Assembly: GCF_026745355.1 (NCBI RefSeq)
Contig: NC_079206.1
Span: forward strand, 3,341,800-3,405,799
Length of the DNA stretch: 64,000 nt
Source: Beta vulgaris subsp. vulgaris
Lineage: Eukaryota > Streptophyta > Magnoliopsida > Caryophyllales > Amaranthaceae
Reading direction: 5' to 3'
Made by a program: the position numbers and the translations under genes. The notes beneath the pieces were generated by a model. That model saw only the letters and a program-made list of their open reading frames with translations. It was not told the DNA's origin and ran no database searches. This document shows positions 24,201-48,008 of the stretch, piece by piece; within the stretch, counting starts at the first letter, position 1; the number at the start of each line of letters is the position of its first letter.

Positions 24201-27003
24201 GGTTGGATATTCATTTGTTTGACGAGAGTTAATATTGGTTGTACTCAAACTCGAGTTAGATGATAAACATGTTTTAGGTGGTTATGGAGCATTTGAGGAT
24301 ATTAATGATTCAAGCATATATGTTATAGAAATTGTATTATCATTTTGGGTTGCCATTTATGTTTCTATGATTTAGATTTTTTGATGGGGTGGACCTTTTG
24401 CAATTGGGGAATGTTAAGACAAACTCTTTGGGAAATTTGTTTGTTTTGACTTTGGAACTTGGAAGTATTTCTATCTTTTGATGTTTGATGAAATTTTATT
24501 ATGAATTGTGAGTTATGACTCTTTAGGAAATATGTTTTTTTTTTATTTTGAGACTTTGGGAAATATTTCTATCTCTTGGTGTTTGATAGAATTAAATTGT
24601 GAATAGTGAGTTCGGATTTTGGATTTAAATTATCATAAGTGTGAATTCTGTGATAGATGACTTCGGTTGTGTTGATGGATAGCATGTGAAGTGTCTAGTT
24701 ACTGAGGAATTGGGGTTCTTAGTGGAGGTGTTATAATTAGGTTGTTGTTTGAGGATAAATTATTGTAAAGGAAGCGATTTGGTGAAAGGATCTAGGTGTA
24801 ATTGTATGTAATGATTGTGTTTGAAAAGGTGTGATGTAGTTTATGGTTGACATACTACGGATAATGTACTACCTTTGATGAACATTATGGCAAGTATCTA
24901 TTACAAGAATTTGAATTTTGGCTCCTCACGTTGTTTAATTGTAGATTATGTAGTATGATGTTAGGTTATTTTGAGGTGGTTGGATATTCATTTGTTTGAC
25001 GAGAGTTAATATTGGTTGTACTCAAACTCGAGTTAGATGATAAACATGTTTTAGGTGGTTATGGAGCATTTGAGGATATTAATGATTCAAGCATATATGT
25101 TATAGAAATTGTATTATCATTTTGGGTTGCCATTTTTGTTTCTATGATTTAGATTTTTTGATTGGGTGGACCTTTTGCAATTGGGGAATGTTAAGACAAA
25201 CTCTTTGGGAAATTTGTTTGTTTTGACTTTGGGACTTGGAAGTATTTCTATCTTTTGATGTTTGATGAAATTTTATTATGAATTGTGAGTTATGACTCTT
25301 TAGGAAATATGTTTTTTTTGACTTTGAGACTTGGGAAATATTTCTATCTCTTGGTGTTTGATAGAATTAAATTGTGAATAGTGAGTTCGGATTTTGGATT
25401 TAAATTATCAAAAGTGTGAATTCTGTGATAGATGACTTCGGTTGTGTTGATGGATAGCATGTGAAGTGTCTAGTTACTGAGGAATTGGGGTTCTTAGTGG
25501 AGGTGTTATAATTAGGTTGTTGTTTGAGGATAAATTATTGTAAAGGAAGCGATTTGGTGAAAAGATCTAGGTGTAATTGTATGTAATGGTTGTGTTTGAA
25601 AAGGTGTGATGTAGTTTAAGGTTGACATACTACGGATAATGTACTACCTTTGATGAACATTATGGCTAAGTATCTATTACAAGAATTTTGGCTACTCACG
25701 TTGTTTAATTGTAGATTATTTAGTAATGATGTTAGGTTATTTTGAGGTGGTTGGATATTCATTTGCTTGACGAGAGTTAAAATTGGTGGTAGACAAACTC
25801 GAGTTAGATGATAAACATGTTTTAGGTTGTTATGGAGCATTTGAGGACATTAATGATCAAGCGTAAATGTTATATCAAGTGTATTATCATTTTGGGTTAC
25901 CATTATTGTGTGTGATTTTGAATTTTTTGATGGGGTGGACTTTTTGCAATTGGGGAATGCTAAGACAAACTTTTTGGGAAATTTGTTTGTTATGACTCTT
26001 TAGGAAATATTTCTATTTGGTGTTTGATAGAATTTTATTGTGAATTGTGAGTTATGACTCTTTAGGAAATATGTTCTTTTTGACTTTGAGACTTAGGAAG
26101 TATTTCTATCTTTTGGTGTTTGATAGAATTAAATTGTGAATAGTGAGTTCAGATTTTGGATTTAAATTATCAAAAGTGTGAATTTTGTGATAAATGACTT
26201 TAGTTGTGTTGATGAATAGGATGTGAAGTGTTTAGTTACCAAGGAATTGGGGTTCTTAGTGGAGGTGTTATGATGAGGTTGTTGTTTGAAGATAAATTAT
26301 TGTAAAGGAAGCGATTTGGTGAAAGTATCTAGGTTTAATTGTATGTAATGGTTGTGTTTGAAAGGCTATGATGTAGTTTATGGTTGACATACTACAGATA
26401 ATGTACTACCTTTGACGAATATTATGATAAGTATCTATTACAAGAATTTTCGCTCCTCACGTTGTTTAATTGTTAGATTATGTAGTATGTTTTTAGGTTA
26501 TTTTGAGGTGGTTGGATATTCATTTGCTGACGAGAGTTAAAATTGGTGGTAGACAAAGTTATTGTTAAACATGTTTTAGGTTTTTATGGAGCATTTGAGG
26601 ACATTAATGATTCAAGCATAACTGTTATATCAAGTGTATTATCATTTTGGGTTACCATTATTGTGTGTATGATTTGGATTTTTTTGATGGGGTGGACCTT
26701 TTGCAATTGGGGAATGCTAAGACAAACTATTTGGGAAATTTGTTTGTTTTGACTTTGAGACTTGGAAATATTTCTATCTTTTGGTGTTTGATAGAATTTC
26801 ATTATGAATTGTGAGTTATGACTCTGTAGGAAATACGTTCTTTTTGACTTTGAGACTTGGGAAGTATTTCTATATTTTGGTGTTTGATAGAATTAAATTG
26901 TGAATATTGAGTTCGGATTTTGGATTTAAATTATCAAAAGTGTGAATTTTGTGATAAATGACTTCTGTTGTGTTGATGGATAGTATGTGAAGTGTTTAGT
27001 TAC
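18280..27003 (+). repeat. Tandem array of about 770-bp units (well-preserved half)
   Basis: About eleven direct repeats. The anchor CTCGAGTTAGATGATAAACA, or a variant, falls near 18564, 19321, 20091, 21157, 21927, 22702, 23477, 24252, 25029 and 25800, with a mutated copy near 26557. Spacings are 757-777 bp. The one exception is 1,066 bp, where a partial unit (about 20,452-20,745) is inserted. Each unit contains an internal direct repeat of about 110 bp, so the pair TTTGACTTTGAGACTTGG / TCTATCTTTTGGTGTTTGAT occurs twice per unit. Units between 22.7 and 25.8 kb share private variants (GTTGTACTCAAAC, TTGCCATTTTTGT), which shows recent local amplification. The plus strand is very poor in C. Small ORFs recur because the units recur; I do not call them genes. 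Confidence 0.9.
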
Positions 27004-27004
27004 A

Positions 27005-28670
27005 CAGCAACCATCATCATTTCTTCTAAAGTTTTGACAATTTCATGCTCAGAACGACCATCTATATTCCATTCATAAAGATGATCTGCAGAGAATTGTT
27101 TTTGAGGACCATATTGACTTCGTTCCTCATATTGAAGGTCTGGAGGTGTTGGTCGTGGATAATAGTTCCTAGTAGGATTATTTCTCCATGAAGAAGGAAA
27201 TTTGGATTTTATTTTGTTAACAGAAAAATGTTCATCAGACTCCTCATTAAAATATTCCTCTTTTGGATAGTCTTCATCGCTGCAGTCACAATCTTGGTCA
27301 ATGCAGTTGATGTTCTTATCCAATCGTTTAGAAATTTCCTTTAAAAGGTTTGATGAGGGTTTTGAAGAAATATTAGTGAACTAGAATTTGATGGTTCAAA
27401 ATCTGGAACCTTTATTAAGAAAGGTTTTGTTATTTCATTTGGATAAGATTTAGAAGTAGAAGCCTTATCATTAGAATTAGACGAATTTTCAGAAATAGAC
27501 AATTTTTTGAAATCCTGTGATAATTGATCTTCTTCTTTAAATTTTGAAATCTGTTCTGACATGTTATCCACTTGTTTAGAAATAGTGTGCAGAATTTTGT
27601 TTGAAAAATTATTTTGTTCATAGACCTTTTTAATGTCTTCTAAGCAGGAATTTTCTTGACCAGATCCCTCTCTCCCGGTTTTGAAGGGAGCAGCATGACA
27701 AGTTTGACCTTGCTGCGTAATCAAAAACCCTTCAAGAGGAGGATACTTGGCTTGAACAATCTTACCGTCTTTAAGTAGGGGTGAAAGTTCGGTGTGCGGT
27801 TTGGATTAGGGTTTAATCCAATCCGATCCGAATAAAATTTGGATTTCAATTTTTCAATCCGAATCCAAACCAATTGGGGTTTGAATCCGATCCAATCCAA
27901 TCCGAATTTTCATACTCTAGATTGGATCCGATCCGAAAATCCGATTTTTTTAAAACTCTAGTTTTTCAATGAAATGAATTAAGCACAACAACAACTTAGT
28001 AGATTCAGGAAATGAGGAATTAAGTGCACTTAGTGTTTTAGGGGAAGGGTTGAAGTGCTATGTGTATTAGGCTATGGAGTAGGTTTTGTTTATAAAAAAA
28101 ACAGTTAAGTACTTAAGCCCAATCCAGATATACATAATATAAGGCATATTACTATTTGGTTATATTGGATTTTTGGATCCGATTACCCTCAATCCAATCC
28201 AATCCGAAAATCCAATTTTTCAAAAAATCTCAATCCGAATCCAATCCGAACACAATTCAAATCCGATCCGAATTACTAATTCGGATTGGATTGGATTGGA
28301 TTTTGGATTTGATCCGAATAACTTTCACCCCTATCTTTAAGTGTCCATTTCTGACTTAAAGACTCGTGAGTTTGAATACTATTAAAGGGATATATTAAAT
28401 CATTTTGACAAAAATATATAGGTAGCCATGTAAAATATAAAACATTTGCAGACAGTTTGTTCATAAAACTGTACCATTCTTCTCTTAGAAAATCTCTTGC
28501 TTCTTTATCAAAATTTTCATAAAACCATTTTCTTTTCTCATAATTTTCTTCTGAAGAAAAGTCTTCTTGCAAATAAGCTTTATCAATTTTGAATTCTCTG
28601 AAAAGAACATTAATGGAGGAGAACGATGGAGGTCTCATTTCAGAGTGAGTTGGAGAAACATTCTCAGTGA
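27005..28670 (-). pseudogene. EPRV A1 coat-protein N-terminal region (broken)
   Basis: The frames 28638-28334 (MRPPSFSSINVLFREFKI start) and 27724-27341 (acidic and Ser-rich, SSNSNDKAST) belong to the start of the coat-like part of the polyprotein. Between them lies the hAT MITE at 27,776-28,333. One base is missing near 27,371 compared with copy B, which shifts the frame before the Asp/Glu-rich segment DCDCSDEDYPKEEY (27,323-27,005). The piece then stops abruptly at host DNA after EEMMMVA. It is not functional as it stands. Confidence 0.75.
27776..28333. mobile_element. hAT-like MITE inside the viral coat region, perfect 8-bp TSD
   Basis: The ends are TAGGGGTGAAAGTTCGG and its inverted complement CCGAATAACTTTCACCCCTA. 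The target duplication TCTTTAAG is exact (27,768-27,775 and 28,334-28,341). The interior consists of reiterated AATCCGATCC/GGATTGGATT words in both orientations. Viral copy B has the empty site TCTTTAAG at 41,372-41,379 with the same flanks, which proves the insertion and its ends. No transposase is present. Confidence 0.9.
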
Positions 28671-29621
28671 TTATTTCAGGAATTGGAGTTTTTTGGAAAA
28701 CTTTATAGGAAGTGTAGAAGGAATATTATCCTCTTTAAAACTTGGAAAAGAACATGATGATCTAGCGGATTGAAATTCATAAGTAGAGGCCGCAGGGAAG
28801 TCTCTACTAGAATTAAATCTGATAAGTACTCGACCATCAGGTTCTTCTATTATTTGTTCAACTTTCTTTTCTTCTATTGGTTTGAGGATGGGTTGAGAGT
28901 CTACTGCCCATTCATCTGGAATAGTAACTTCATCCCATTTTAAGGATTTTGGAACGTGTGTAGTGGCTTGTCCTAGTTCCACTTTAAACATCAAAGTTTC
29001 ACCAGGTGCAAACCTTATTCTACACTTTGGATTAAGCTGAGAGTTTAATAATTTGTAATAAATTCGATAAATAATTGAAAAATTCCTTGCTCCTTCAAAT
29101 TGAATATTATGAGCCATATTCACATCTAAAATCAAAGATTGAAGAATAAATGGATCTTCTAAATCTTTAGATAGGTTTGGAAAACAATTGAAGTAAATTG
29201 GACCTTGACAAATATTAGTATTAGCTAAAGCAAGCAAAGAATCTTTAAATGTTTTTAAAGATTTATCACGCAAAGCTAACATAACTGGACAATCTAAACC
29301 TAATCTGACCATAGGTTTAATAGCAATTTGGACACAACCAAAATGAATATACCTATGACCTTGACTGACATAATTTTGAATTGACTTTGAATCTAAAAGT
29401 TGGAGACTCATAACTTTGGATGCAACACTTGTAGTAAACTCTTCTATCCTAATTCCATGCGAAGACATGAAATTCCATGGACTCTTTTCATAAATTTGAG
29501 ACTCTGAAATTTTTGGAAGTTGCCAATTTTGAAAATCTTTGGAAATGACCTCATGGCTTTGGACTGGGTGTTTCATACTGGAACTACTACCTACAAGCTT
29601 CTTGATCTTACTCAAGGACAT
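28671..29621 (-). CDS. EPRV A1 movement protein (30K superfamily)
   Basis: A 316-codon open frame starting MSLSKIKKLV. The central part (YVSQGHRYIHFGCVQIAIKP, GLDCPVMLALRD) has the pattern of caulimovirid 30K cell-to-cell movement proteins, which bind nucleic acid and form plasmodesmal tubules (family knowledge). The C-terminal tail is acidic, then Ser-rich. The frame ends just after a run of six A on the coding strand. A one-base shift there would continue into the coat region (PEIITENVSP). Copy B has the same feature, so the ORF boundary is either authentic or an old shared mutation. This copy appears intact; copy B is broken. Confidence 0.78.
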   Translation of the reverse strand: MSLSKIKKLVGSSSSMKHPVQSHEVISKDFQNWQLPKISESQIYEKSPWNFMSSHGIRIEEFTTSVASKVMSLQLLDSKSIQNYVSQGHRYIHFGCVQIAIKPMVRLGLDCPVMLALRDKSLKTFKDSLLALANTNICQGPIYFNCFPNLSKDLEDPFILQSLILDVNMAHNIQFEGARNFSIIYRIYYKLLNSQLNPKCRIRFAPGETLMFKVELGQATTHVPKSLKWDEVTIPDEWAVDSQPILKPIEEKKVEQIIEEPDGRVLIRFNSSRDFPAASTYEFQSARSSCSFPSFKEDNIPSTLPIKFSKKLQFLK

Positions 29622-29799
29622 TGGAATGATATAAATTTGACACTAGCAAATACTGTGGGACTTACGGGACCAACTGCTACGGGGACCACCTAACCACGGC
29701 TGACCAACCTTAGATGCAGTCTAAACCAACGTATGACCACGCACACGTATATGCAGTGCTAAACTTATATGTATTCTAATGGCAGAAAGTAAAATAAAG

Positions 29800-29870
29800 A
29801 TGCTACAGTAGATGTTGCAGTATGCTACAGTAATGCTACAGTGTCGGTACTATACAGTATGCTACAGTAT
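29800..29870 (-). repeat. TGCTACAGTA-type motif repeated in the viral leader
   Basis: The words GATGCTACAGTAG, TATGCTACAGTAATGCTACAGT and TATGCTACAGTATGG give about five copies of a 9-10 bp motif in 70 bp, just downstream of the primer site in viral orientation. It is present again at about 42,830-42,902 in copy B. The role is unknown. Confidence 0.7.
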
Positions 29871-29883
29871 GGCTCTGATACCA
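29871..29883 (-). other. tRNA-Met primer-binding site of EPRV A1
   Basis: The minus strand reads TGGTATCAGAGCC, complementary to the 3' end of initiator tRNA-Met, the primer used by Caulimoviridae for minus-strand synthesis (established). It lies in the leader, about 250 bp before the movement ORF. A short (TA)n run lies at 29,903-29,916. Confidence 0.88.
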
Positions 29884-30087
29884 GAATGGAAGGAGCTTTG
29901 GTATATATATATATATTAAAACGATATTTAAAAGAAATGGAATTTATAAAGCAATTTAAACAAAATTTGAAGTAATGTAGAAAATCTTACTTTTGATATA
30001 TCTGGATAAAAGCTTCAAAGATTGGAGGTGATAAATAGTAAACTACACTTGAGACTAAGATTATTACAGAGATAATTTTTATGAAGG

Positions 30088-33000
30088 ATGAAGGCTGAAA
30101 ATTTTTCTGTTAACAAAATAAAATCCAAATTTCCTTCTTCATGGAGAAATAATCCTACTAGGAACTATTATCCACGACCAACACCTCCAGACCTTCAATA
30201 TGAGGAACGAAGTCAATATGGTCCTCAAAAACAATTCTCTGCAGATCATCTTTATGAATGGAATATAGATGGTCGTTCTGAGCATGAAATTGTCAAAACT
30301 TTAGAAGAAATGATGATGGTTGCTGAAGTTTATCATAGATCGAATGATAATGTATCTATGAACGAAGCGGCCGCTGCCATAGCAAGAGGTTTTACAGGAA
30401 ACCTTAAGCATTGGTGGGAAAATGTAATTTCCTTAAGAGATAAAATTGATATATTAAATGCTGTAGAAGAAAAATCCGAAGAAAAAATAGATCCAACTAC
30501 TGGAGAAGTTAAAAAAGAAATTAAAAGAACTGACAGAGGATTAAGAATGTTAATGTCTGCAATTGTAATGCATTTCATGGGAAACGCCTCAGATCATCTC
30601 AAAACTGGACATATAATTCTGAGTAACCTCCGATGTCCTTCTTTAAGTGACTATCGATGGTATAAAGACGTCTTCCTATCAAATGTATTAACCAGAGAAG
30701 ATTGTACTCTTCCATTCTGGAAAGAAAAATTTATCTCCGGTCTTCCAACTCTTTTTGCTCAAAGAATTTTCAACAAGCTCCGAGAAGCCACGGGTCAAGA
30801 TGAAATTCCATACAATGAATTTACATACGGACAACTGTTTGCCTTTATCAAACGAGAAGGATTGTCCCTATGTAATGAATTGAGAATTCAAACTAAGTAT
30901 GGAAATGAAAAAGCCATAAAACGTAAGGAACTAGGATCTTTCTGTGAGGCCTTTGGTCTAGAAAAGATTCAAGCTCCTTCTACCAGAAAACGACAAGAAA
31001 AATTTAAAAGGTCGAAATTCGTTAATAAACCTAAATCCAAGATTCCTAAATTTTCTGAAAAATATTATAAAAAGGGTAAAAAAGTAAAGTCTAAAAAACA
31101 TGTAGATGATACAACTATCATCTGCTACAAATGCGGAAAACCTGGTCATAAAGCTAACAAATGTAATTTTAAGAAGAAAATAAATGAAATATTCTCCGAT
31201 AACCCTGATCTCCAAAATAAACTTCTTAAGCTCTTCCAATTAAGTCAAAATTCCTCATCTGAGTCAGAAGATAATGAAATAAATCAACTGTGTTATGACA
31301 GTGATAATTCTACATCTTCTGATAACTCTTCTGTTCAATTCTGTACTCAAAATATTTGTGTCCTTTCAAATTCTGATAAGGAGAAAGAATTGATTCTTGA
31401 CATTGTGGACAAGATCAATGATCCTCTTATCAAAGAACAATATCTTAAAAGATTAAGAGATATAGTTCTTAAAAAACCAATACTGTCCAACAACAGAACA
31501 GAAGAAGAAAATCTAAATCAAATTCTTAAAATGGCATCTAAAAGTCCAATAACGCCTATTACCACAAAAGAGCTCCAAACTGAAATCAATCATATCAAAT
31601 CCCAGATCAAACAAATTCAAGATTCTATATTAGATCTTCATACCAAAGATCTAAGTATAGAAGCAAAATTGAGTCTGCTTGAAAACAACAATTATCCAAG
31701 GCAAAAATCTAAAGAGATTATAATTGAACATCAAACATCTTCATCTGATTTTACAAATGATCAATTTTGTCAAGTTATAGAAAGAATATCTTTTCAAAAA
31801 TGGTATTGTTTAATAACTCTTTCTGTATCAAATGATTTTCAAAGAAATATTATTGCCCTAGTAGATAGTGGTGCTGATCAGAATTGTTTAAGAGAAGGAT
31901 TAATACCTTCAAAGTTTTACGAAAAAACTTCTGAACAATTACAAAGTGCTAATGACGCTAAGCTCCAAATTAAGTACAAACTCCCAAAAGCTTATGTTTG
32001 TAACTCAGGTTATTGTTTCAAAAATTCTTTTATTTTAGTCAAAGATATTAGTAATGAAATGATTTTAGGAACCCCCTTTCTAACTCAAATTTATCCTTTT
32101 CATGTTAACTCTGAAGGAATACACACTAATGTTTTGGGAAAGGAAATGACTTTCAAATTTGTTACTTCTGTTAGTCAAAAGGATATTCATCTCTTACAAT
32201 CAAGCACTATTTCTCAACAGATAAACCAAATCTCTTCAAAAAGGTCTCAGATTAAAATGCTTAAAGATGAAATATCTTACCTTCGCATAGAAGAACAATT
32301 GCAAAGGAAAGATATTCAACAAAAGATTAAAGAAATTGAAGAACGTTTTCAAAATGAAATTTGTTCTGATGTTCCAAATGCTTTCTGGGAAAGAAAGAAA
32401 CATGTTGTTTATCTACCTTATGAAAAAGATTTTTCTGAAAAAAATATTCCAACTAAAGCCAGACCAATCCAAATGAACCAAGAACTTTTAGAATTTTGCA
32501 AGAAAGAAATCCAAACCCTTCTTGACAAAAAACTTATTCGACCCTCAAAATCTCCTTGGAGTTGCTCAGCCTTTTATGTTAATAATCAAGCCGAAAAAGA
32601 AAGAGGTGTCCCTCGGCTAGTTGTTAACTATAAACCTTTAAACAAAGCTCTCCAATGGATTCGTTACCCTATTCCAAATAAGAAAGATTTGTTAAATAGA
32701 TTATATGATGCAAAAATTTTCTCCAAATTTGATATGAAAAGTGGTTTTTGGCAAATCCAAATAGCAGAGGAAGACAGATATAAAACTGCCTTCAATGTTC
32801 CTTTCGGGCATTACGAATGGAACGTTATGCCTTTTGGAATTAAGAATGCTCCATCAGAATTTATGAATATTATGAACGATATTCTAAATCCTTATTCTAA
32901 TTTTGTTATTGTCTACATTGACGATGTGTTAGTATATTCCAATTCTGTTGAACAGCATATGAAACACCTAAACATCTTTTTAAATGTTATTAAAAGAAAT

Positions 33001-33747
33001 GGTTTAGTTGTTTCTGCACCAAAGATGAAGCTTTTCCAAACAAAGATTAGATTTTTGGGTCATGATATTCACCAAGGAACTATCAAGCCAATAGCTCGCG
33101 CTATAGAATTTTCTGATAAGTTCCCTGATGAAATCAAAGATAAAAATCAATTGCAGAGGTTTCTAGGATGTCTTAATTATGTCTCTGATTTCTTTCCAAA
33201 TTTACGTCAATTATGTGCTCCTTTGTATAAACGTCTGCAAAAGAATCCCCCTGCATGGAGTCAAGAGCATACTGCATTGGTCAAACAGTTAAAACAAAAG
33301 GTCAAGTCCCTTCCATGCATAGGTCTTCCACATCCTCAAGCATTCATGATAGTTGAAACAGATGCCTCGGAGATAGGATATGGAGGCATTCTCAAACAAA
33401 AATTGCATGAGTCATCCAATGAACAAGTTGTTAGATTCACGTCAGGTCTATGGCTCGGACCTCAAAAGAATTATTCTACTATTAAAAAGGAAATTTTATC
33501 AATAGTTTTATGTATTTCTAAATTCCAAGATGATTTGTACAATAAAAGGTTTTTGTTAAGAATAGATTGTAAATCTGCTAAAGAAGTTTTACAAAAGGAT
33601 GTTCAAAATATTGTTTCAAAACAAATTTTTGCAAGATGGCAAGCTATCTTGTCAGTTTTTGATTTTGAAATTGAATTCATTAAAGGAGAAAACAATTCAC
33701 TTCCAGATTTTCTTACCCGTGAATTTTTACAGGGAAGAAATGGGTAA
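30088..33747 (+). CDS. EPRV A2 polyprotein: coat, protease, reverse transcriptase, RNase H
   Basis: One open frame of 1,219 codons. Residues about 50-330 are coat-like (AAAAIARGFTGNLKHWWENV). The CCHC knuckle CYKCGKPGHKANKC is at 346-359. A retropepsin aspartic protease (VDSGAD, Asp593) follows a coiled-coil stretch. The reverse transcriptase (about 790-1010) has Asp882 (FDMKSGFWQI) and YIDD at 943-946. RNase H has Asp1092, Glu1135, Asp1160 and Asp1207. No integrase follows. All catalytic residues I can check are present and there is no stop or frameshift, unlike copy B. The first codons (MKAEN) are leader sequence fused by the A1/A2 joint, so the true N-terminus (movement protein and coat start) is missing here. 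The last 8 nt overlap the next ORF. Confidence 0.9.
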   Translation: MKAENFSVNKIKSKFPSSWRNNPTRNYYPRPTPPDLQYEERSQYGPQKQFSADHLYEWNIDGRSEHEIVKTLEEMMMVAEVYHRSNDNVSMNEAAAAIARGFTGNLKHWWENVISLRDKIDILNAVEEKSEEKIDPTTGEVKKEIKRTDRGLRMLMSAIVMHFMGNASDHLKTGHIILSNLRCPSLSDYRWYKDVFLSNVLTREDCTLPFWKEKFISGLPTLFAQRIFNKLREATGQDEIPYNEFTYGQLFAFIKREGLSLCNELRIQTKYGNEKAIKRKELGSFCEAFGLEKIQAPSTRKRQEKFKRSKFVNKPKSKIPKFSEKYYKKGKKVKSKKHVDDTTIICYKCGKPGHKANKCNFKKKINEIFSDNPDLQNKLLKLFQLSQNSSSESEDNEINQLCYDSDNSTSSDNSSVQFCTQNICVLSNSDKEKELILDIVDKINDPLIKEQYLKRLRDIVLKKPILSNNRTEEENLNQILKMASKSPITPITTKELQTEINHIKSQIKQIQDSILDLHTKDLSIEAKLSLLENNNYPRQKSKEIIIEHQTSSSDFTNDQFCQVIERISFQKWYCLITLSVSNDFQRNIIALVDSGADQNCLREGLIPSKFYEKTSEQLQSANDAKLQIKYKLPKAYVCNSGYCFKNSFILVKDISNEMILGTPFLTQIYPFHVNSEGIHTNVLGKEMTFKFVTSVSQKDIHLLQSSTISQQINQISSKRSQIKMLKDEISYLRIEEQLQRKDIQQKIKEIEERFQNEICSDVPNAFWERKKHVVYLPYEKDFSEKNIPTKARPIQMNQELLEFCKKEIQTLLDKKLIRPSKSPWSCSAFYVNNQAEKERGVPRLVVNYKPLNKALQWIRYPIPNKKDLLNRLYDAKIFSKFDMKSGFWQIQIAEEDRYKTAFNVPFGHYEWNVMPFGIKNAPSEFMNIMNDILNPYSNFVIVYIDDVLVYSNSVEQHMKHLNIFLNVIKRNGLVVSAPKMKLFQTKIRFLGHDIHQGTIKPIARAIEFSDKFPDEIKDKNQLQRFLGCLNYVSDFFPNLRQLCAPLYKRLQKNPPAWSQEHTALVKQLKQKVKSLPCIGLPHPQAFMIVETDASEIGYGGILKQKLHESSNEQVVRFTSGLWLGPQKNYSTIKKEILSIVLCISKFQDDLYNKRFLLRIDCKSAKEVLQKDVQNIVSKQIFARWQAILSVFDFEIEFIKGENNSLPDFLTREFLQGRNG

Positions 33748-35017
33748 GAATAAGTCGTCAAAGTCAAAATCAAAAGAAACTTCAAATGATCAAATTGTTC
33801 TCCATCCTTCAGGAATTCCAATTACCCAAAATGCCTTTCAAAACTTACAAGATTTTCCTCCAATAACATTTGCCCAAGCTACAGAAAAACCTTCTCAAAT
33901 TTCTCCTTCTAAAACTCCAGAATACCTGAAAAAAGAATTTGAAGAACCAATCACTCTTTTATCATTTTCTAATGTCCCAACTAAAGATAATATTCAAACT
34001 TTTCTTTCAAGATTTCTACCGCCCAATTTCAATTGGATCCCAGAAGATCCAAGAAAGGATTTAAGTTTCTATCGTCAAATTTTAGTAGAGTCAAATTCCT
34101 GTAAGATTGATGATAAAATTGCCAAAGATACGAATTTTTCCAAATGTCTCATTTTTCAAATCATTATATCCTCTGATTGGGGAAATTCTCCCTGGTCTTA
34201 CCGTCCTTTGTCCAAACCATGTAATAATTTAACTGGATACAACTATTACGACTATGTCCATGCCTGGCATAGAGTTTTCCTTGTGGAAAGTTACAACCAT
34301 TCATGGTTTATTAATTTCCATCCAGTTTGCCTCAAAAATAATCCAAGATTTCCTGTATGGTTTCTTGAATGGTGGCGTAAGTATGGTCTAGAACCCTCTT
34401 TGCTGCCAGAAGAACTCAAAAAACCATTCCAATACTTTTGTTCCAAGACCGCCAGAAGCTCCCAGTGGCAAATGATCAATATAATGGATTTTTGCAAGAC
34501 TTTCCGTCTAGCATGGATCTCTTGTTGGTCATACTGCTGGTTCCAAAGAAATCAAAATGAACCTTATACCCTTCACCGTCAATTCAATGTTAAGTGGTGG
34601 AAGAATTTTACAATATTTCCAGGGTTTCTCCAATTAGTATCTGATTACTGTTCCATGGGAGAAAAAGCTCTTCAAAGATATTCAGATTGGTCCAAAGAAC
34701 AAGAATTGAAGAAAAGATCTCCTAATGTCCAAGCTCAAACTCAGCCCATTCCTGTTCCGGTCCATCTTCAAGTTCCAAATCCAAGTTTTGACATTGCAGG
34801 TCCATCAACTCCTTCTAAAGATAAAAACAAACAATCCATCTCTAAGCAAAAGAAGTCCATTACTCCAGATTCGGCCTTATTTGACGAATTTTTGGAATTC
34901 AAGAAGTTTGTCAAAGCTCGGTCTTCAGCTGAAGCAACCGAAAAATCCAGTTCAAGTTCCAGTTCTGAGGGCTCTTCCTGTATGGGCCCATTTTCTCAAG
35001 ATCCTTATGACTTTTAA
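33740..35017 (+). CDS. EPRV A2 downstream ORF (ORF2), function unknown
   Basis: 425 codons from ATG 33,740, overlapping the polyprotein stop in the string ATGGGTAA. Such overlaps suit reinitiation or leaky scanning on a polycistronic viral RNA. The start is Lys/Ser-rich (MGKNKSSKSKSKE). The middle is rich in Trp, Phe and Tyr (FPVWFLEWWRKYG, WISCWSYCWFQRN). The tail has Ser/Pro repeats and a Ser run. I recognise no domain. By position it could stand for the transactivator/inclusion protein ORF of caulimoviruses, or be the second ORF of florendovirus-like genomes, whose function is unknown to me. It is intact here and frameshifted in copy B. Confidence 0.75.
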   Translation: MGKNKSSKSKSKETSNDQIVLHPSGIPITQNAFQNLQDFPPITFAQATEKPSQISPSKTPEYLKKEFEEPITLLSFSNVPTKDNIQTFLSRFLPPNFNWIPEDPRKDLSFYRQILVESNSCKIDDKIAKDTNFSKCLIFQIIISSDWGNSPWSYRPLSKPCNNLTGYNYYDYVHAWHRVFLVESYNHSWFINFHPVCLKNNPRFPVWFLEWWRKYGLEPSLLPEELKKPFQYFCSKTARSSQWQMINIMDFCKTFRLAWISCWSYCWFQRNQNEPYTLHRQFNVKWWKNFTIFPGFLQLVSDYCSMGEKALQRYSDWSKEQELKKRSPNVQAQTQPIPVPVHLQVPNPSFDIAGPSTPSKDKNKQSISKQKKSITPDSALFDEFLEFKKFVKARSSAEATEKSSSSSSSEGSSCMGPFSQDPYDF

Positions 35018-35463
35018 AGTTTTCCAGATGTACAGTCCAGATTAATCTTCCAGAAGACTTTTCCAAAAGATTTACAGATGTATCGTCCAGATTTATTCTC
35101 CAAAAGGTCTTTTTCAGATAATTGAAAACCTCTCCAGCTGTCCCATTATTATTGTGATCAAGACTCCACCAAACCGTCCAAATTTTGAAGACCGTCCACC
35201 TGTCAAAGAAAGCAATCAGTAGTTTAAAGTTTGTTTTTGCGTGTTGTAATTTAATTGGTCAAGTATTTGTATAAGTAGATGAATTGTGATCCAGTTGAAG
35301 GCAAGCGTTTTTCAGCTTAGAAAAATTTTCAGCCTTCATCCTTCATAAAAATTATCTCTGTAATAATCTTAGTCTCAAGTGAAGTTTACTATTTATCACC
35401 TCCAATCTTTGAAGCTCTTGTACATTTATCCAGATATATCAAAAGTAAGATTTTCTACATTAC
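35018..35463 (+). promoter_or_regulatory. EPRV A2 intergenic region with putative pregenomic-RNA promoter
   Basis: A non-coding region after ORF2, running into the leader. TATAAGTA at 35,270-35,277 lies at the place expected for a 35S-like promoter, between the last ORF and the leader holding the primer site. The same motif occurs inverted in copy B near 35,690-35,700. The promoter call is inference from position and TATA only. Confidence 0.45.
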
Positions 35464-35937
35464 CATGGAATTTATAAAGCAATTTAAACAAAATTTGAAG
35501 TAATGTAGAAAATCTTACTTTTGATATATCTGGATAAAAGCTTCAAAGATTGGAGGTGATAAATAGTAAACTACACTTGAGACTAAGATTATTACAGAGA
35601 TAATTTTTATGAAGGATGAAGGCTGAAAATTTTTCTAAGCTGAAAAACGCTTGCCTTCAACTGGATCACAATTCATCTACTTATACAAATACTTGACCAA
35701 TTAAATTACAACACGCAAAAACAAACTTTAAACTACTGATTGCTTTCTTTGACAGGTGGACGGTCTTCAAAATTTGGACGGTTTGGTGGAGTCTTGATCA
35801 CAATAATAATGGGACAGCTGGAGAGGTTTTCAATTATCTGAAAAAGACCTTTTGGAGAATAAATCTGGACGATACATCTGTAAATCTTTTGGAAAAGTCT
35901 TCTGGAAGATTAATCTGGACTGTACATCTGGAAAACT

Positions 35938-37213
35938 TTAAAAGTCATAAGGATCTTGAGAAAATGGGCCCATACAGGAAGAGCCCTCAGAACTGGAACT
36001 TGAACTGGATTTTTCGGTTGCTTCAGCTGAAGACCGAGCTTTGACAAACTTCTTGAATTCCAAAAATTCGTCAAATAAGGCCGAATCTGGAGTAATGGAC
36101 TTCTTTTGCTTAGAGATGGATTGTTTGTTTTTATCTTTAGAAGGAGTTGATGGACCTGCAATGTCAAAATTGGATTTGGAACTTGAAGATGGACCGGAAC
36201 AGGAATGGGCTGAGTTTGAGCTTGGACATTAGGAGATCTTTTCTTCAATTCTTGTTCTTTGGACCAATCTGAATATCTTTGAAGAGCTTTTTCTCCCATG
36301 GAACAGTAATCAGATACTAATTGGAGAAACCCTGGAAATATTGTAAAATTCTTCCACCACTTAACATTGAATTGACGGTGAAGGGTATAAGGTTCATTTT
36401 GATTTCTTTGGAACCAGCAGTATGACCAACAAGAGATCCATGCTAGACGGAAAGTCTTGCAAAAATCCATTATATTGATCATTTGCCACTGGGAGCTTCT
36501 GGCGGTCTTGGAACAAAAGTATTGGAATGGTTTTTTGAGTTCTTCTGGCAGCAAAGAGGGTTCTAGACCATACTTACGCCACCATTCAAGAAACCATACA
36601 GGAAATCTTGGATTATTTTTGAGGCAAACTGGATGGAAATTAATAAACCATGAATGGTTGTAACTTTCCACAAGGAAAACTCTATGCCAGGCATGGACAT
36701 AGTCGTAATAGTTGTATCCAGTTAAATTATTACATGGTTTGGACAAAGGACGGTAAGACCAGGGAGAATTTCCCCAATCAGAGGATATAATGATTTGAAA
36801 AATGAGACATTTGGAAAAATTCGTATCTTTGGCAATTTTATCATCAATCTTACAGGAATTTGACTCTGCTAAAATTTGACGATAGAAACTTAAATCCTTT
36901 CTTGGATCTTCTGGATCCAATTGAAATTGGGCGGTAGAAATCTTGAAAGAAAAGTTTGAATATTATCTTTAGTTGGGACATTAGAAAATGATAAAAGAGT
37001 GATTGGTTCTTCAAATTCTTTTTTCAGGTATTCTGGAGTTTTAGAAGGAGAAATTTGAGAAGGTTTTTCTGTAGCTTGGGCAAATGTTATTGGAGGAAAA
37101 TCTTGTAAGTTTTGAAAGGCATTTTGGGTAATTGGAATTCCTGAAGGATGGAGAACAATTTGATCATTTGAAGTTTCTTTTGATTTTGACTTTGACGACT
37201 TATTCTTACCCAT
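35938..37213 (-). pseudogene. EPRV B downstream ORF2 (frameshifted)
   Basis: Same sequence as the intact ORF2 in A2, starting MGKNKSSKSK at 37,213. A frameshift near 36,905-36,920 (around a GGATCC) and another near 36,170 break it into two frames. Confidence 0.8.
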
Positions 37214-40200
37214 TTCTTCCCTGTAAAAATTCACGGGTAAGAAAATCTGGAAGTGAATTGTTTTCTCCTTTAATGAATTCAATTTCAAAATCAAAAACTG
37301 ACAAGATAGCTTGCCATCTTGCAAAAATTTGTTTTGAAACAATATTTTGAACATCCTTTTGTAAAACTTCTTTAGCAGATTTACAATCTATTCTTAACAA
37401 AAACCTTTTATTTACAAATCATCTTGAATTTAGAAATACATAAAACTATTGATAAAATTTCCTTTTTAATAGTAGAATAATTCTTTTGAGGTCCGAGCCA
37501 TAGACCTGACGTGAATCTAACAACTTGTTCATTGGATGACTCATGCAATTTTTGTTTGAGAATGCCTCCATATCCTATCTCCGAGGCATCTGTTTCAACT
37601 ATCAGAATGCTTGAGGATGTGGAAGACCTATGCATGGAAGGGACTTGACCTTTTGTTTTAACAGTTTGACCAATGCAGTATGCTCTTGACTCCATGCAGG
37701 GGGATTCTTTTGCAGACGTTTATACAAAGGAGCACATAATTGACGTAAATTTGGAAAGAAATCAGAGACATAATTAAGACATCCTAGAAACCTCTGCAAT
37801 TGATTTTTATCTTTGATTTCATCAGGGAACTTATCAGAAAATTCTATAGCGCGAGCTATTGGCTTGATAGTTCCTTGGTGAATATCATGACCCAAAAATC
37901 TAATCTTTGTTTGGAAAAGCTTCATCTTTGGTGCAGAAACAACTAAACCATTTCTTTTAATAACATTTAAAAAGATGTTTAGGTGTTTCATATGCTGTTC
38001 AACAGAATTGGAATATACTAACACATCGTCAATGTAGACAATAACAAAATTAGAATAAGGATTTAGAATATCGTTCATAATATTCATAAATTCTGATGGA
38101 GCATTCTTAATTCCAAAAGGCATAACGTTCCATTCGTAATGCCCGAAAGGAACATTGAAGGCAGTTTTATATCTGTCTTCCTCTGCTATTTGGATTTGCC
38201 AAAAACCACTTTTCATATCAAATTTGGAGAAAATTTTTGCATCATATAATCTATTTAACAAATCTTTCTTATTTGGAATAGGGTAACGAATCCATTGGAG
38301 AGCTTTGTTTAAAGGTTTATAGTTAACAACTAGCCGAGGGACACCTCTTTCTTTTCGGCTTGATTATTAACATAAAAGGCTGAGCAACTCCAAGGAGATT
38401 TTGAGGGTCGAATAAGTTTTTTGTCAAGAAGGGTTTGGATTTCTTTCTTGCAAAATTCTAAAAGTTCTTGGTTCATTTGGATTGGTCTGGCTTTAGTGGA
38501 ATATTTTTTTCAGAAAAATCTTTTTCATAAGGTAGATAAACAACATGTTTCTTTCTTTCCCAGAAAGCATTTGGAACATCAGAACAAATTTCATTTTGAA
38601 AACGTTCTTCAATTTCTTTAATCTTTTGTTGAATATCTTTCCTTTGCAATTGTTCTTCTATGCGAAGGTAAGATATTTCATCTTTAAGCATTTTAATCTG
38701 AGACCTTTTTGAAGAGATTTGGTTTATCTGTTGAGAAATAGTGCTTGATTGTAAGAGATGAATATCCTTTTGACTAACAGAAGTAACAAATTTGAAAGTC
38801 ATTTCTTTCCCAAAACATTAGTGTGTATTCCTTCAGAGTTAACATGAAAAGGATAAATTTGAGTTAGAAAGGGGGTTCCTAAAATCATTTCATTACTAAT
38901 ATCTTTGACTAAAATAAAAGAATTTTTGAAACAATAACCTGAGTTACAAACATAAGCTTTTGGGAGTTTGTACTTAATTTGGAGCTTAGCGCCATTAGCA
39001 CTTTGTAATTGTTCAGAAGTTTTTTCATAAAACTTTGAAGGTATTAATCCTTCTCTTAAACAATTTGATCAGCACCACTATCTACTAGGGCAATAATATT
39101 TCTTTGAAAATCATTTGATACAGAAAGAGTTATTAAACAATACCATTTTTGAAAAGATATTCTTTCTATAACTTGACAAAATTGATCATTTGTAAAATCA
39201 GATGAAGATGTTATGTTCAATTATAATCTCTTTAGATTTTTGCTTTGGACAATTGTTGTTTTCAAGCAGACTCAATTTTGCTTCTATACTTAGATCTTTG
39301 GTATGAAGATCTAATATAGAATCTTGAATTTGTTTGATCTGGGATTTGATATGATTGATTTCAGTTTGGAGCTCTTTTGTGGTAATAGGGTTATTGGACT
39401 TTTAGATGCCATTTTAAGAATTTGATTTAGATTTTCTTCTTCTGTTCTGTTGTTGGACAGTATTGGTTTTTTAAGAACTATATCTCTTAATCTTTTAAGA
39501 TATTGTTCTTTGATAAGAGGATCATTGATCTTGTCCACAATGTCAAGAATCAATCTTTCTCCTTATCAGAATTTGAAAGGACACAAATATTTTGAGTACA
39601 GAATTGAACAGAAGAGTTATCAGAAGATGTAGAATTATCACTGTCATAACACAGTTGATTTATTTCATTATCTTCTGATCAAGATGAGGAATTTTGACTT
39701 AATTGGAAAGATTAAGAAGTTTATTTTGGAGATCAGGGTTATCGGAAAATATTTCATTTATTTTTTCTTAAAATTACATTTGTTAGCTTTATGACCAGGT
39801 TTTCCGCATTTGTAGCAGATGATAGTTGTATCATCTACATGTTTTTTAGACTTTACTTTTTACCCTTTTTATAATATTTTTCAGAATTTAGGAATCTTGG
39901 ATTTAGGTTTATTAACGAATTTTGACCTTTTAAATTTTTCTTGTCGTTTTCTGGTGAAGGAGCTTGAATCTTTTCTAGACCAAAGGCCTCACAGAAAGAT
40001 CCTAGTTCCTTACGTTTTATGGCTTTTTCATTTCCATACTTAGTTTGAATTCTCAATTCATTACATAGGACAATCCTTCTCGTTTGATAAAGGCAAACAG
40101 TTGTCCGTATGTAAATTCATTGTATGGAATTTCATCTTGACCCGTGGCTTCTCGGAGCTTGTTGAAAATTCTTTGAGCAAAAAGAGTTGGAAGACCGGAG

Positions 40201-41709
40201 ATAAATTTTTCTTTCCAGAATGGAAGAGTACAATCTTCTCTGGTTAATACATTTGATAGGAAGACGTCTTTATACCATCGATAGTCACTTAAAGAAGGAC
40301 ATCGAAGGTTACTCAGAATTATATGTCCAGTTTTGAGATGATCTGAGGCGTTTCCCATGAAATGCATTACAATTGCAGACATTAACATTCTTAATCCTCT
40401 GTCAGTTCTTTTAATTTCTTTTTTAACTTCTCCAGTAGTTGGATCTATTTTTTCTTCGGATTTTTCTTCTACAGCATTTAATATATCAATTTTATCTCTT
40501 AAGGAAATTACATTTTCCCACCAATGCTTAAGGTTTCCTGTAAAACCTCTTGCTATGGCAGCGGCCGCTTCGTTCATAGATACATTATCATTCGATCTAT
40601 GATAAACTTCAGCAACCATCATCATTTCTTCTAAAGTTTTGACAATTTCATGCTCAGAACGACCATCTATATTCCATTCATAAAGATGATCTGCAGAGAA
40701 TTGTTTTTGAGGACCATATTGACTTCGTTCCTCATATTGAAGTCTGGCGGTGTTGGTCGTGGATAATAGTTCCTAGTAGGATTATTTCTCCACGAAGAAG
40801 GAAATTTGGATTTTATTTTGTTGATAGAAAAATGTTCATCAGACTCCTCATTAAAATATTCCTCTTTTGGATAGTCTTCATCACTGCAGTCACAATCTTG
40901 GTCAATGCAGTTGATGTTCTTATCCAATCGTTTAGAAATTTCCTTTAAAAGGTTTGATGAGGGTTTTGAAGAAAATATTAGTGAACTAGAATTTGATGGT
41001 TCAAAATCTGGAACCTTTATTAAGAAAGGTTTTGTTATTTCATTTGGATAAGATTTAGAAGTAGAAGCCTTATCATTAGAATTAGACGAATTTTCAGAAA
41101 TAGACAATTTTTTGAAATCCTGTGATAATTGATCTTCTTCTTTAAATTTTGAAATCTGTTCTGACATGTTATCCACTTGTTTAGAAATAGTGTGCAGAAT
41201 TTTGTTTGAAAAATTATTTTGTTCATAGACCTTTTTAATGTCTTCTAAGCAGGAATTTTCTTGACCAGATCCCTCTCTCCCGGTTTTGAAGGGAGCAGCA
41301 TGACAAGTTTGACCTTGCTGCGTAATCAAAAACCCTTCAAGAGGAGGATACTTGGCTTGAACAATCTTACCTCTTTAAGTGTCCATTTTTGACTTAAAGA
41401 CTCGTGAGTTTGAATACTATTAAAGGGATACATTAAATCATTTTGACAAAAATATATAGGTAGCCATGTAAAATATAAAACATTTGCAGACAGTTTGTTC
41501 ATAAAACTGTACCATTCTTCTCTTAGAAAATCTCTTGCTTCTTTATCAAAATTTTCATAAAACCATTTTCTTTTCTCATAATTTTCTTCTGAAGAAAAGT
41601 CTTCTTGCAAATAAGCTTTATCAATTTTGAATTCTCTGAAAAGAACATTAATGGAGGAGAACGATGGAGGTCTCATTTCAGAGTGAGTTGGAGAAACATT
41701 CTCAGTGAT
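37206..41709 (-). pseudogene. EPRV B polyprotein remnant (coat-protease-RT-RNase H)
   Basis: The coat N-part (41,676-41,326), coat body (41,329-40,667 and 40,625-40,053), protease region, RT with YIDDVLVYS (in 38,261-37,602) and RNase H (37,695-37,206) are all present in order. Open pieces overlap in different frames, which shows at least seven frameshifts, mostly single-base losses next to short homopolymers. Unlike A1, this copy has no MITE at 41,372-41,379. It is not translatable as one protein. Confidence 0.85.
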
Positions 41710-42653
41710 TATTTCAGGAATTGGAGTTTTTTGGAAAACTTTATAGGAGGTGTAGAAGGAATATTATCCTCTTAAAACTTGGAAAAGAACATGATGATCT
41801 AGCGGATTGAAATTCATAAGTAGAGGCCGCAGGGAAGTCTCTACTAGAATTAAATCTGATAAGTACTCGACCATCAGGTTCTTCTATTATTTGTTCAACT
41901 TTCTTTTCTTCTATTGGTTTGAGGATGGGTTGAGAGCTACTGCCCATTCATCTGGAATAGTAACTTCATCCCATTTTAAGGATTTTGGAACGTGTGTAGT
42001 GGCTTGTCCTAGTTCCACTTTAAACATCAAAGTTTCACCAGGTGCAAACCTTATTCTACACTTTGGATTAAGCTGAGAGTTTAATAATTTGTAATAAATT
42101 CGATAAATAATTGAAAAATTCCTTGCTCCTTCAAATTGAATATTATGAGCCATATTCACATCTAAAATCAAAGATTGAAGAATAAATGGATCTTCTAAAT
42201 CTTTAGATAGTTTGGAAAACAATTGAAGTAAATTGGACCTTGACAAATATTAGTATTAGCTAAAGCAAGCAAAGAATCTTTAAATGTTTTTAAAGATTAT
42301 CACGCAAAGCTAACATAACTGGACAATCTAATCCTAATCTGACCATAGGTTTAATAGCAATTTGGACACAACCAAAATGAATATACCTATGACCTTGACT
42401 GACATAATTTTGAATTGACTTTGAATCTAAAAGTTGGAGACTCTTGCTTGGATGCAACACTTGTAGTAAACTCTTCTATCCTAATTCCATGCGAAGACAT
42501 GAAATTCCATGGACTCTTTTCATAAATTTGAGACTCTGAAATTTTTGGAAGTTGCCAATTTTGAAAATCTTTGGAAATGACCTCATGGCTTTGGACTGGA
42601 TGTTTCATACTGGAACTACTACCTACAAGCTTCTTGATCTTACTCAAGGACAT
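41710..42653 (-). pseudogene. EPRV B movement protein (frameshifted)
   Basis: Matches the A1 movement ORF from MSLSKIKKLV. It is split by one-base deletions near 41,773, 41,936, 42,210 and 42,297, and has a small change near 42,443 where the region after SVASK diverges. Confidence 0.8.
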
Positions 42654-42902
42654 TGGAATGTATATAAATTTGACACTAGCAAATACTGTGGGACTTACGG
42701 GACCAACTGCTACGGGGACCACCTAACCACGGCTGACCAACCTTAGATGCAGTCTAAACCAACGTATGACCACGCACACGTATATGCAGTGCTAAACTTA
42801 TATGTATTCTAATGGCGGAAAGTAAAATAAAGATGCTACAGTAGACGTTGCAGTATGCTACAGTAATGCTACAGTGCGGTACTATACAGTATGCTACAGT
42901 AT

Positions 42903-42915
42903 GGCTCTGATACCA
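42903..42915 (-). other. tRNA-Met primer-binding site of EPRV B
   Basis: The minus strand reads TGGTATCAGAGCC, as in A1. It lies about 45 bp from the right border of the viral block. Confidence 0.88.
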
Positions 42916-42957
42916 GAATGGAAGGAGCTTTGGTATATATATATATATTAAAACGAT

Positions 42958-44041
42958 ATTTTGAATTTTTTGATGGGGTGGACTTTTTGCAATTGGGGAA
43001 TGCTAAGACAAACTTTTTGGGAAATTTGTTTGTTATGACTCTTTAGGAAATATTTCTATTTGGTGTTTGATAGAATTTTATTGTGAATTGTGAGTTATGA
43101 CTCTTTAGGAAATATGTTCTTTTTGACTTTGAGACTTAGGAAGTATTTCTATCTTTTGGTGTTTGATAGAATTAAATTGTGAATAGTGAGTTCAGATTTT
43201 GGATTTAAATTATCAAAAGTGTGAATTTGTGATAAATGACTTTAGTTGTGTTGATGAATAGGATGTGAAGTGTTTAGTTACAAGGAATTGGGGTTCTTAG
43301 TGGAGGTGTTATGATGAGGTTGTTGTTTGAAGATAAATTATTGTAAAGGAAGCGATTTGGTGAAAAGTCTAGGTTTAATTGTATGTAATGGTTGTGTTTG
43401 AAAGGCTATGATGTAGTTTATGGTTGACATACTACAGATAATGTACTACCTTTGACGAATATTATGATAAGTATCTATTACAAGAATTTTCGCTCCTCAC
43501 GTTGTTTAATTGTAGATTATGTAGTATGTTTTTAGGTTATTTTGAGGTGGTTGGATATTCATTTGCTGACGAGAGTTAAAATTGGTGGTAGACAAAGTTA
43601 TTGTTAAACATGTTTTAGGTTTTATGGAGCATTTGAGGACATTAATGATTCAAGCATAACTGTTATATCAAGTGTATTATCATTTTGGGTTACCATTATT
43701 GTGTGTATGATTTGGATTTTTTTGATGGGGTGGACCTTTTGCAATTGGGGAATGCTAAGACAAACTATTTGGGAAATTTGTTTGTTTTGACTTTGAGACT
43801 TGGAAATATTTCTATCTTTTGGTGTTTGATAGAATTTCATTATGAATTGTGAGTTATGACTCTGTAGGAAATACGTTCTTTTTGACTTTGAGACTTGGGA
43901 AGTATTTCTATATTTTGGTGTTTGATAGAATTAAATTGTGAATATTGAGTTCGGATTTTGGATTTAAATTATCAAAAGTGTGAATTTTGTGATAAATGAC
44001 TTCTGTTGTGTTGATGGATAGTATGTGAAGTGTTTAGTTAC
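42958..44041 (+). repeat. 1.08-kb direct duplication of the array flanking the viral block
   Basis: This stretch repeats 25,916-27,003 almost base for base, including private variants absent from other units: the shortened GTTATGACTC segment after TTTGTTT, and GACAAAGTTATTGTTAAACA in place of the CTCGAG anchor. Only a few one-base indels separate the two. It ends at the same base (TTTAGTTAC) where the left copy meets the virus, and the array then continues normally. Confidence 0.88.
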
Positions 44042-47994: not shown

Positions 47995-47996
47995 AA

Positions 47997-48008
47997 TGGT
48001 ATCAGAGC
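47997..48008 (+). other. tRNA-Met primer-binding site of the LTR element
   Basis: TGGTATCAGAGC starts two bases after the 5' LTR, complementary to the initiator tRNA-Met 3' end. Confidence 0.9.

What the first reader, a model, noticed from the sequence alone, without database searches (positions are those of the whole stretch)
27005..42961. Three-piece, mixed-orientation concatemer of an endogenous caulimovirid with one full genome circle
Two minus pieces and one plus piece of the same virus are joined. B is one full genome circle opened in the leader about 45 bp from the primer site. A2 meets B tail to tail, giving a palindrome with arms of about 5.35 kb and an axis near 35,465-35,500. A1 and A2 meet at a shared ATTTTTCT. 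The left host joint has one filler base and the right host joint a 3-4 bp overlap. This pattern suggests end-joining of several viral DNA molecules during break repair.
Basis: partly seen in the sequence, partly recalled or inferred. Interest (0 to 1): 0.85.

Follow-up and report, generated by a model that had tools for sequence, protein, structure and literature searches.

The report
Rearranged beet virus fossil, duplicated flanks
Three pieces of a plant DNA virus are glued together in mixed directions inside a repeat array of what is most likely the beet genome, and the host DNA at the break appears copied on both sides; the scrambled virus is a known kind of thing, the 1.1-kb copied flank is the unusual part.

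Summary
Three pieces of one caulimovirid lie in a ~765-bp tandem array: A1 (minus, 27005-30108), A2 (plus, ~30101-35463) and B (minus, 35465-42961, a full circle less 7 nt). A2 and B form a 5.35-kb-arm palindrome. Joints show 1-nt filler, 8-bp microhomology, 1-nt filler, 4-bp microhomology. No integrase was found; coat and movement-protein domains and a florendovirus-like gene order were. Host: most likely Beta vulgaris. (1) The insert is flanked by a 1089-bp direct duplication of the array (2 mismatches; every other array match of that stretch differs at over 5% of sites). (2) The palindrome arms are different viral variants, and A1 and A2 share a variant where B differs, so fold-back copying is very unlikely and at least two molecules were joined. 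(3) It is not unique: 8 of 11 further loci are mosaics with 22 rearranged joints (11 inverted, 11 direct), and piece ends cluster in the viral leader (15 of 55). Best reading: end-joining capture of several viral DNAs at a break with kb-scale target duplication. Rearranged, inverted endogenous caulimovirids are known; the long flanking duplication is the part worth testing. Frame breaks may partly be assembly errors.

The parts
18286..27003 (+). host tandem array (~765-775 bp unit, G- and T-rich + strand), left flank
   Evidence: self-BLAST; composition
25915..27003 (+). left copy of the 1089-bp flanking host duplication
   Evidence: 99.36% (2 mismatches, 5 one-base gaps) to 42958-44041
27004..27004 (.). 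one filler base at host|A1 joint
27005..30108 (-). piece A1: leader, primer site, movement protein, DUF7588, start of coat region; interrupted by a transposon
27776..28333 (.). hAT-like non-autonomous element in A1, end repeats TAGGGGTGAAAGTT, 8-bp target duplication TCTTTAAG
   Evidence: absent from B and not matched in the 26 slices mapped
28671..29642 (-). movement protein frame in A1 (PF01107, E 3e-19)
29872..29883 (-). tRNA-Met-type primer site in A1
   Evidence: motif recalled
30101..30108 (.). 8-bp microhomology ATTTTTCT at A1|A2
30096..35463 (+). piece A2: coat, protease, RT, RNase H, ORF2, intergenic region
30085..33747 (+). open frame of 1220 aa in A2 (stop to stop): DUF7746, caulimovirid coat, CCHC, protease, RT, RNase H
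   Evidence: scanned in three pieces
33566..35017 (+). ORF2, 483 aa, no Pfam family; two hits in 5.8 billion proteins, one 97% identical
35464..35500 (.). palindrome spacer: one filler base plus 36 nt of B
35465..42961 (-). piece B: one full genome circle opened 46 nt upstream of the primer site, 7 nt short
42904..42915 (-). primer site in B
   Evidence: motif recalled
42958..42961 (.). 4-bp microhomology ATTT at B|host
42958..44041 (+). right copy of the flanking host duplication

Best explanation
This is an endogenous caulimovirid of florendovirus type, most likely in Beta vulgaris. During or soon after an infection, at least two variant viral DNA molecules (the A variant, giving A1 and A2, and the B variant) with free ends in the leader near the primer site were ligated to one another and into chromosome break(s) in a tandem array by host end-joining (classical or polymerase-theta type). 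Shown: piece structure, joint micro-anatomy, the sharing of variants, the flanking duplication and the break of array phase. Inferred: the order of joining, the enzymes, and how the host duplication arose; my preferred route is that the viral chain bridged two ends offset by 1.09 kb (sister chromatids, or a staggered break filled in). I found no sign of a function for the locus; if transcribed, its long inverted repeat could feed small RNAs against the virus.
For: Joints with 1-nt fillers and 4- and 8-bp microhomology. MP, caulimovirid coat, CCHC, protease, RT and RNase H domains, and no integrase in any of 14 viral frame pieces scanned (frames under 120 aa not scanned). A2 has an 8-bp leader stretch (35417-35424) that A1 and B both lack; 13 of 14 copies at other loci that span the site have it, one (C15a) lacks it, so it is a viral polymorphism. 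In their ~226-bp overlap A1 shares all 4 of its substitutions against B with A2, which has one more; three of the four states occur in no other-locus row compared. A2 and B are sisters among 15 copies in RT (99/97) and among 13 copies in ORF2 (100/100), support rough. The flanking duplication has 2 mismatches in 1084 sites against a best-match background of 0.87% minimum and 4.5% median over 40 stretches of 800 bp, and 1089 is not a multiple of the ~765-bp unit. Eight of 11 further loci show the same kind of mosaic; 15 of 55 piece ends fall in a 285-nt leader zone, 2.1 expected.
Against: No reads were seen, so an assembly error is not excluded. The flank duplication could be an older array duplication followed by a deletion at insertion; alignment ends cannot test this because virus lies beyond both. 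At the two other loci with both flanks readable, similar long matches (872 bp, 4.17 kb) are not outliers against their satellites. A1 resembles B, not A2, at its leader end, and in the movement-protein segment A1's nearest copy is at C15a (4 differences), not B (7), so variant descent is mosaic. The CP-protease segment does not join A2 with B. Eight of 15 A1/B and 3 of 18 A2/B substitutions have both states at other loci. The end count was compiled by hand and AT-rich alignment breaks inflate it.
Confidence: 0.72

Rival explanations
1. One over-length linear genome (A1 continuous with A2) inserted beside B, and the A2 part was later inverted; A1 and A2 are two halves of one molecule.
For: A1 and A2 ends match on the circle within 129 and 229 nt; chance 0.6% for uniform ends, 2.5% with ends drawn from the other loci. 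They share substitutions absent elsewhere at one overlap.
Against: At the other overlap A1 equals B (172/172) and lacks the 8-bp stretch that A2 has; a staggered-break inversion would leave these two copies identical at the time.
Confidence: 0.13
2. Fold-back (snap-back) synthesis made the palindrome: B was copied into A2.
For: 5.35-kb arms at ~99%, 37-nt spacer.
Against: A2 has the common 8-bp stretch, about 40 nt inside its arm, that B and A1 lack; of 18 A2/B substitutions 14 are A2 states absent at other loci against 1 for B; one filler base at the joint.
Confidence: 0.04
3. Assembly chimera of separate viral loci.
For: Long inverted repeats are hard to assemble; differences between pieces include many 1-bp indels (17 of 19 indel events between A2 and B), as in residual long-read error.
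Against: Arms differ by real substitutions; the joints have clean micro-anatomy; none of the 22 rearranged joints read at other loci has the window's pair of ends; host phase break and flank duplication coincide with the insert.
Confidence: 0.08
4. The flank match is an old array duplication (as in the run of units at about 98-99% within 22986-25786) and the insertion deleted part of a unit.
For: Recent unit duplication does occur in this array; at C15a background matches are as close as the flank match.
Against: The stretch 25915-27003 has no other relative in the window closer than about 92%, and the required copy would have to sit exactly across the insert.
Confidence: 0.25

Closest known systems
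Endogenous florendoviruses (Geering 2014, PMC4241990; passages seen)
   Same: 7.2-8.5 kb genome, ORF1 with MP-CP-zinc finger-protease-RT-RNase H, second ORF of a 45-58 kDa protein without homologues, integration explained by end joining
   Different: frames from MP to coat are separate in A1 and B (mutation, assembly error or a split ORF1); no host TA repeat next to the joints (nearest found at 46102, 3.1 kb away); long flank duplication, whereas that paper speaks of short stretches gained or lost
beetEPRV1-3 of sugar beet (Schmidt 2021, Ann Bot, doi 10.1093/aob/mcab042; not held; content recalled; the entry of 3 beetEPRVs seen in PMC11603912 passages)
   Same: same host as inferred; recalled as florendoviruses of 7.5-10.7 kb, clustered and near satellite DNA
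   Different: could not be compared by sequence, so whether this is one of them, and which, remains open
Rearranged endogenous caulimovirids: rice ERTBV (PMC526188, passages), tomato LycEPRV (PMC1899175, passages), eBSV and inverted-repeat tomato loci (review PMC10377300, passages and sections 2.1, 3.1, 3.3)
   Same: inverted, duplicated and truncated pieces; in rice, piece ends concentrated in the intergenic region and at discontinuities
   Different: here nearly identical copies, one whole circle, and a kb-scale flanking duplication
Multi-copy T-DNA integration (PMC8348815, passages)
   Same: arrays with inverted repeats, microhomology or filler at joints, host duplications at the insert
   Different: the duplications in those passages are mostly inverted; viral DNA has no delivery machinery

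Membership tests
Endogenous Caulimoviridae | caulimovirid coat domain with CCHC finger | tested here: met
   PF22909 E 1e-9 and PF00098 in A2
Endogenous Caulimoviridae | 30K-type movement protein | tested here: met
   PF01107 E 3e-19 in A1
Endogenous Caulimoviridae | protease, RT and RNase H without integrase | tested here: met
   RVP, RVT_1, RNase H found; no integrase family in 14 viral frame pieces (frames under 120 aa not scanned)
Endogenous Caulimoviridae | circular genome, tRNA-Met primer site | tested here: met
   A1 spans B's opening; primer motif (recalled) at 29872 and 42904
Florendovirus | second ORF of 45-58 kDa without homologues, other frame | tested here: met
   483-aa ORF2 in another frame, 0 Pfam, 2 database hits
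Florendovirus | one ORF1 from MP to RNase H | tested here: inconclusive
   frames are separate in A1 and B; 1-bp indels may be the cause
Florendovirus | monophyly in protease-RT-RNase H phylogeny | not tested
   no named reference set at hand; the one viral-contig scan found no relative
Ty3/gypsy LTR retrotransposon | integrase and flanking LTRs | tested here: not met
   no integrase family; the repeats are permuted circle pieces, not LTRs
Insertion with target-site duplication | direct host duplication reaching both joints | tested here: met
   25915-27003 and 42958-44041; that it arose at insertion is inferred, no empty site was available

The most novel reading that the evidence does not exclude
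Endogenous caulimovirids in tandem arrays are captured as chains of viral molecules that bridge two breaks offset by about 1-4 kb (for example on sister chromatids at a stalled fork), leaving kb-scale direct duplications of the host on both sides, a scar not described in the passages I read.
Probability: 0.3. Interest if true: 0.6.

Novelty: new member of a known kind. Interest (0 to 1): 0.42.

Why it matters
How viruses without an integrase become part of plant chromosomes is still called speculative in the 2023 review (PMC10377300, section 3.1 read). A young locus with every joint readable, one whole circle, distinguishable parental variants and a long host duplication constrains that step, and the 11 further loci in one genome make a joint-by-joint comparison possible. 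The 10.7-kb inverted repeat is also a natural candidate for antiviral small-RNA production, as the review reports for inverted-repeat loci in tomato.

Tried and rejected
Fold-back synthesis of the palindrome: rejected on the 8-bp leader difference and the 14-to-1 split of states. Twin-priming-like origin of A1/A2 (inverted 5' half joined to forward 3' half with a 229-bp overlap): considered because the layout fits, dropped because A2 has no poly(A) at its 3' end, the leader overlap differs, and the C12 and C15b joints do not show the layout. Long flank duplications as a rule: at C15a (872 bp, 1-2 mismatches) and C15b (4.17 kb, 32-60 mismatches) the flank match is not an outlier against the background of those satellites (best-match minimum 0.12% of 48 stretches and 0.96% of 52), so they only hint. 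Host-methylation decay as cause of A2's own changes: their types are mixed. Sequence search of solved structures with the protease-region piece: no hit. tRNA and Rfam scans (gathering threshold) of the window: nothing. Papers that hold pararetrovir*, target site duplication, integration and flanking: 10, titles and abstract starts seen only; none of these is about long duplications at endogenous caulimovirids.
Full report
WHAT IS THERE. The window is part of a 569-Mb assembly in 20 contigs. A host frame at 6997-9666 is 99% identical to Beta vulgaris BVRB_5g099790, the next best being spinach at 72%, so the host is most likely beet. Between 18286 and about 45.5 kb lies a tandem array of ~765-775-bp units with a very strong G-over-C skew; degenerate relatives of the unit run on to about 54.3 kb. 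The array is interrupted at 27004-42961 by three pieces of one virus.

PIECES AND JOINTS. A1 (27005-30108) and B (35465-42961) have their viral sense on the minus strand, A2 (~30101-35463) on the plus strand. B is a whole circle less 7 nt; A1 crosses the opening and shows those 7 nt. The circle is thus about 7.50 kb. The excess stretch of A1 (27776-28333) is a hAT-like element with 8-bp target duplication. The four joints show a 1-nt filler, an 8-bp microhomology, a 1-nt filler and a 4-bp microhomology: end-joining marks. The coordinates and joint details of the finding were reproduced.

WHAT VIRUS. Pfam finds movement protein, caulimovirid coat, CCHC finger, aspartic protease, RT and RNase H, and no integrase in any of the 14 viral frame pieces scanned. 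A second, 483-aa frame has no family and only two database relatives, one at 97%. Size, order and the orphan ORF2 match florendoviruses as described in PMC4241990 (passages). Membership in florendovirus was not tested by a tree.

THE HOST WAS DUPLICATED. The right flank does not continue the array in phase. Its first 1084 bp (42958-44041) repeat the last 1089 bp before the insert (25915-27003) with 2 mismatches and 5 one-base gaps. That stretch has no other match in the window better than about 92%. Over 40 test stretches of 800 bp in this array the best match elsewhere differs by at least 0.87%, median 4.5%, against 0.18% here. 1089 is about 1.42 units, so the phase of the array changes exactly at the insert. 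The simplest reading is a 1.09-kb target duplication made at integration. A caution: the array does contain one recent run of units at about 98-99%, and virus lies beyond both ends of the match, so its limits cannot be tested.

HOW MANY MOLECULES. A2 carries an 8-bp leader stretch (35417-35424, about 40 nt inside the inner end of its arm) that A1 and B lack. Of 14 copies at other loci that span the site 13 have all eight bases and one (C15a) has none. So the difference is viral, and B was not simply folded back into A2. In the stretch shared by A1, A2 and B (~226 bp) all 4 substitutions of A1 against B are shared by A2, which has one more; three of the four states occur in no other-locus row compared, where 11-13 rows carry B's state. 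So A1 and A2 carry one variant there and B another, while A2 and B are sisters among 15 copies in RT and among 13 copies in ORF2 (support rough): one strain, at least two molecules. Against this simple picture, A1 equals B at its leader end (172/172), its movement-protein segment is nearest to the C15a copy (4 differences against 7 to B), and A2 does not group with B in the CP-protease segment; the variants look recombined. Of 18 A2/B substitutions 14 are A2 states absent at other loci (3 of them shared with A1), 1 is a B state absent elsewhere and 3 occur in both forms elsewhere; of 15 A1/B substitutions the figures are 5 (the same 3 shared with A2), 2 and 8. The 14:1 split has p 0.001. Equal decay after insertion would not do this, so most of the A2/B difference probably predates the insertion. 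A1 and A2 also have matching ends on the circle, within 129 and 229 nt (chance 0.6-2.5%), so together they make just over one genome; whether they were one molecule is open, and the leader overlap argues against it.

AGE. B states absent elsewhere number 1 in its overlap with A2 and 2 in its overlap with A1, and the flank copies differ by 2 of 1084. With a plant mutation rate near 7e-9 per site and year (recalled) this means of the order of 50,000-150,000 years; it is a rough figure from very few changes.

NOT ALONE. Of 40 places scored, 17 match the 1.2-kb probe at 98% or more: the window's A2 and B and 15 others at 11 loci; the other 23 belong to a lineage at about 70% (the tool scores only the best candidates, so these are lower bounds, and one probe only was answered). 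Slices round the 11 loci were mapped. Eight of 11 contain rearranged viral joints, 22 in all, 11 inverted and 11 direct (the direct ones include small internal deletions and duplications; joints with over 120 nt of unaligned sequence or at a slice edge are not counted); three (C2, C5, C6 at 50.12 Mb) show one piece in their readable part. Parts of 17 of 26 slices were masked, and both host flanks could be read only at two C15 loci, which lie in a ~382-bp satellite. There the right flank also repeats the left one (872 bp, 1-2 mismatches; 4.17 kb, 32-60 mismatches) and the array phase is broken, but the matches do not stand out from the background of those satellites. None of the 22 joints has the window's pair of end positions.

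WHERE THE ENDS LIE. I compiled 55 piece ends by hand, dropping masked ends and ends beside more than about 95 nt of unaligned sequence (except one at C15a, kept). Fifteen fall in a leader zone of 285 of 7504 nt where 2.1 are expected; 12 of 50 without the window. AT-rich sequence there ends alignments early, which inflates the count. The result agrees with the rice ERTBV paper (PMC526188, passages), which links such ends to discontinuities of the open circle.

HOW IT MOST LIKELY AROSE. Open-circular or linear viral DNA with ends near the primer site was present in a germline or meristem cell; several molecules and the array ends were joined by end-joining. The host duplication needs two host ends offset by 1.09 kb. 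A viral chain joining two sister chromatids broken at different units, or filling of a long staggered break, would do; the paper on small tandem duplications at breaks with 3' overhangs (PMC8355091, passages) deals with far shorter overlaps. T-DNA lines show similar features: arrays with inverted repeats, filler or microhomology, and duplications, there mostly inverted (PMC8348815, passages).

KNOWN OR NEW. Inverted, multi-copy, rearranged endogenous caulimovirids are established, and end joining is a widely held explanation (PMC10377300, PMC526188, PMC1899175; passages or sections seen). Beet has three described beetEPRVs (PMC11603912, passages; the primary paper was not held and is recalled). 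The locus is a new, unusually legible member of a known kind. The long flanking duplication was not described in anything I read, but my paper searches cover only open-licence text and were read as listings and passages.

CAVEATS. No reads were seen. Of 19 indel events between A2 and B 17 are single bases, few in homopolymers; together with A2's long open frames this suggests that part of the frame breaks in A1 and B may be residual assembly error in multi-copy sequence. A genome-wide count of the joints, the inserted element and the array unit was not possible because the genome search stayed busy.

Noticed in passing
47673-50181: LTR-type element: 322-bp direct repeats at 99.7%, tRNA-Met primer motif 2 nt behind the left repeat (47997), one 601-aa frame (48029-49834) with no Pfam family and no CCHC motif; looks like a young non-autonomous retrotransposon.
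   Followed up: partly
18286-54351 outside the virus: Array with GC skew mostly +0.3 to +0.5 and negative AT skew over tens of kb, unit ~765 bp falling to about 70% similarity rightwards; no Rfam hit. Such skew is, from recall, typical of R-loop-prone DNA and could make breaks likely.
   Followed up: partly
27776-28333: hAT-like non-autonomous element (TIR TAGGGGTGAAAGTT, TSD TCTTTAAG) inserted in A1; absent from B, so it probably came after the virus.
   Followed up: partly
L013/L014 and L011/L012 (C15 contig): Two viral loci 66 kb apart on a 656-kb contig lie in a ~382-bp satellite; a related satellite (about 85-90%) flanks the C12 locus (L010).
   Followed up: partly
L013:6140-6340: About 201 nt next to the viral leader at locus C15a match neither the window nor the other 25 slices; filler or a divergent leader.
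   Followed up: no
40612-40836 and homologues: This 225-bp stretch before the coat domain differs by up to 5.8% among 16 copies, against maxima of 0.9-2.7% in the four other segments compared.
   Followed up: no
62453-63496: Minus-strand frame matching the first 22 positions of a WRKY domain, probably an exon of a WRKY gene.
   Followed up: no
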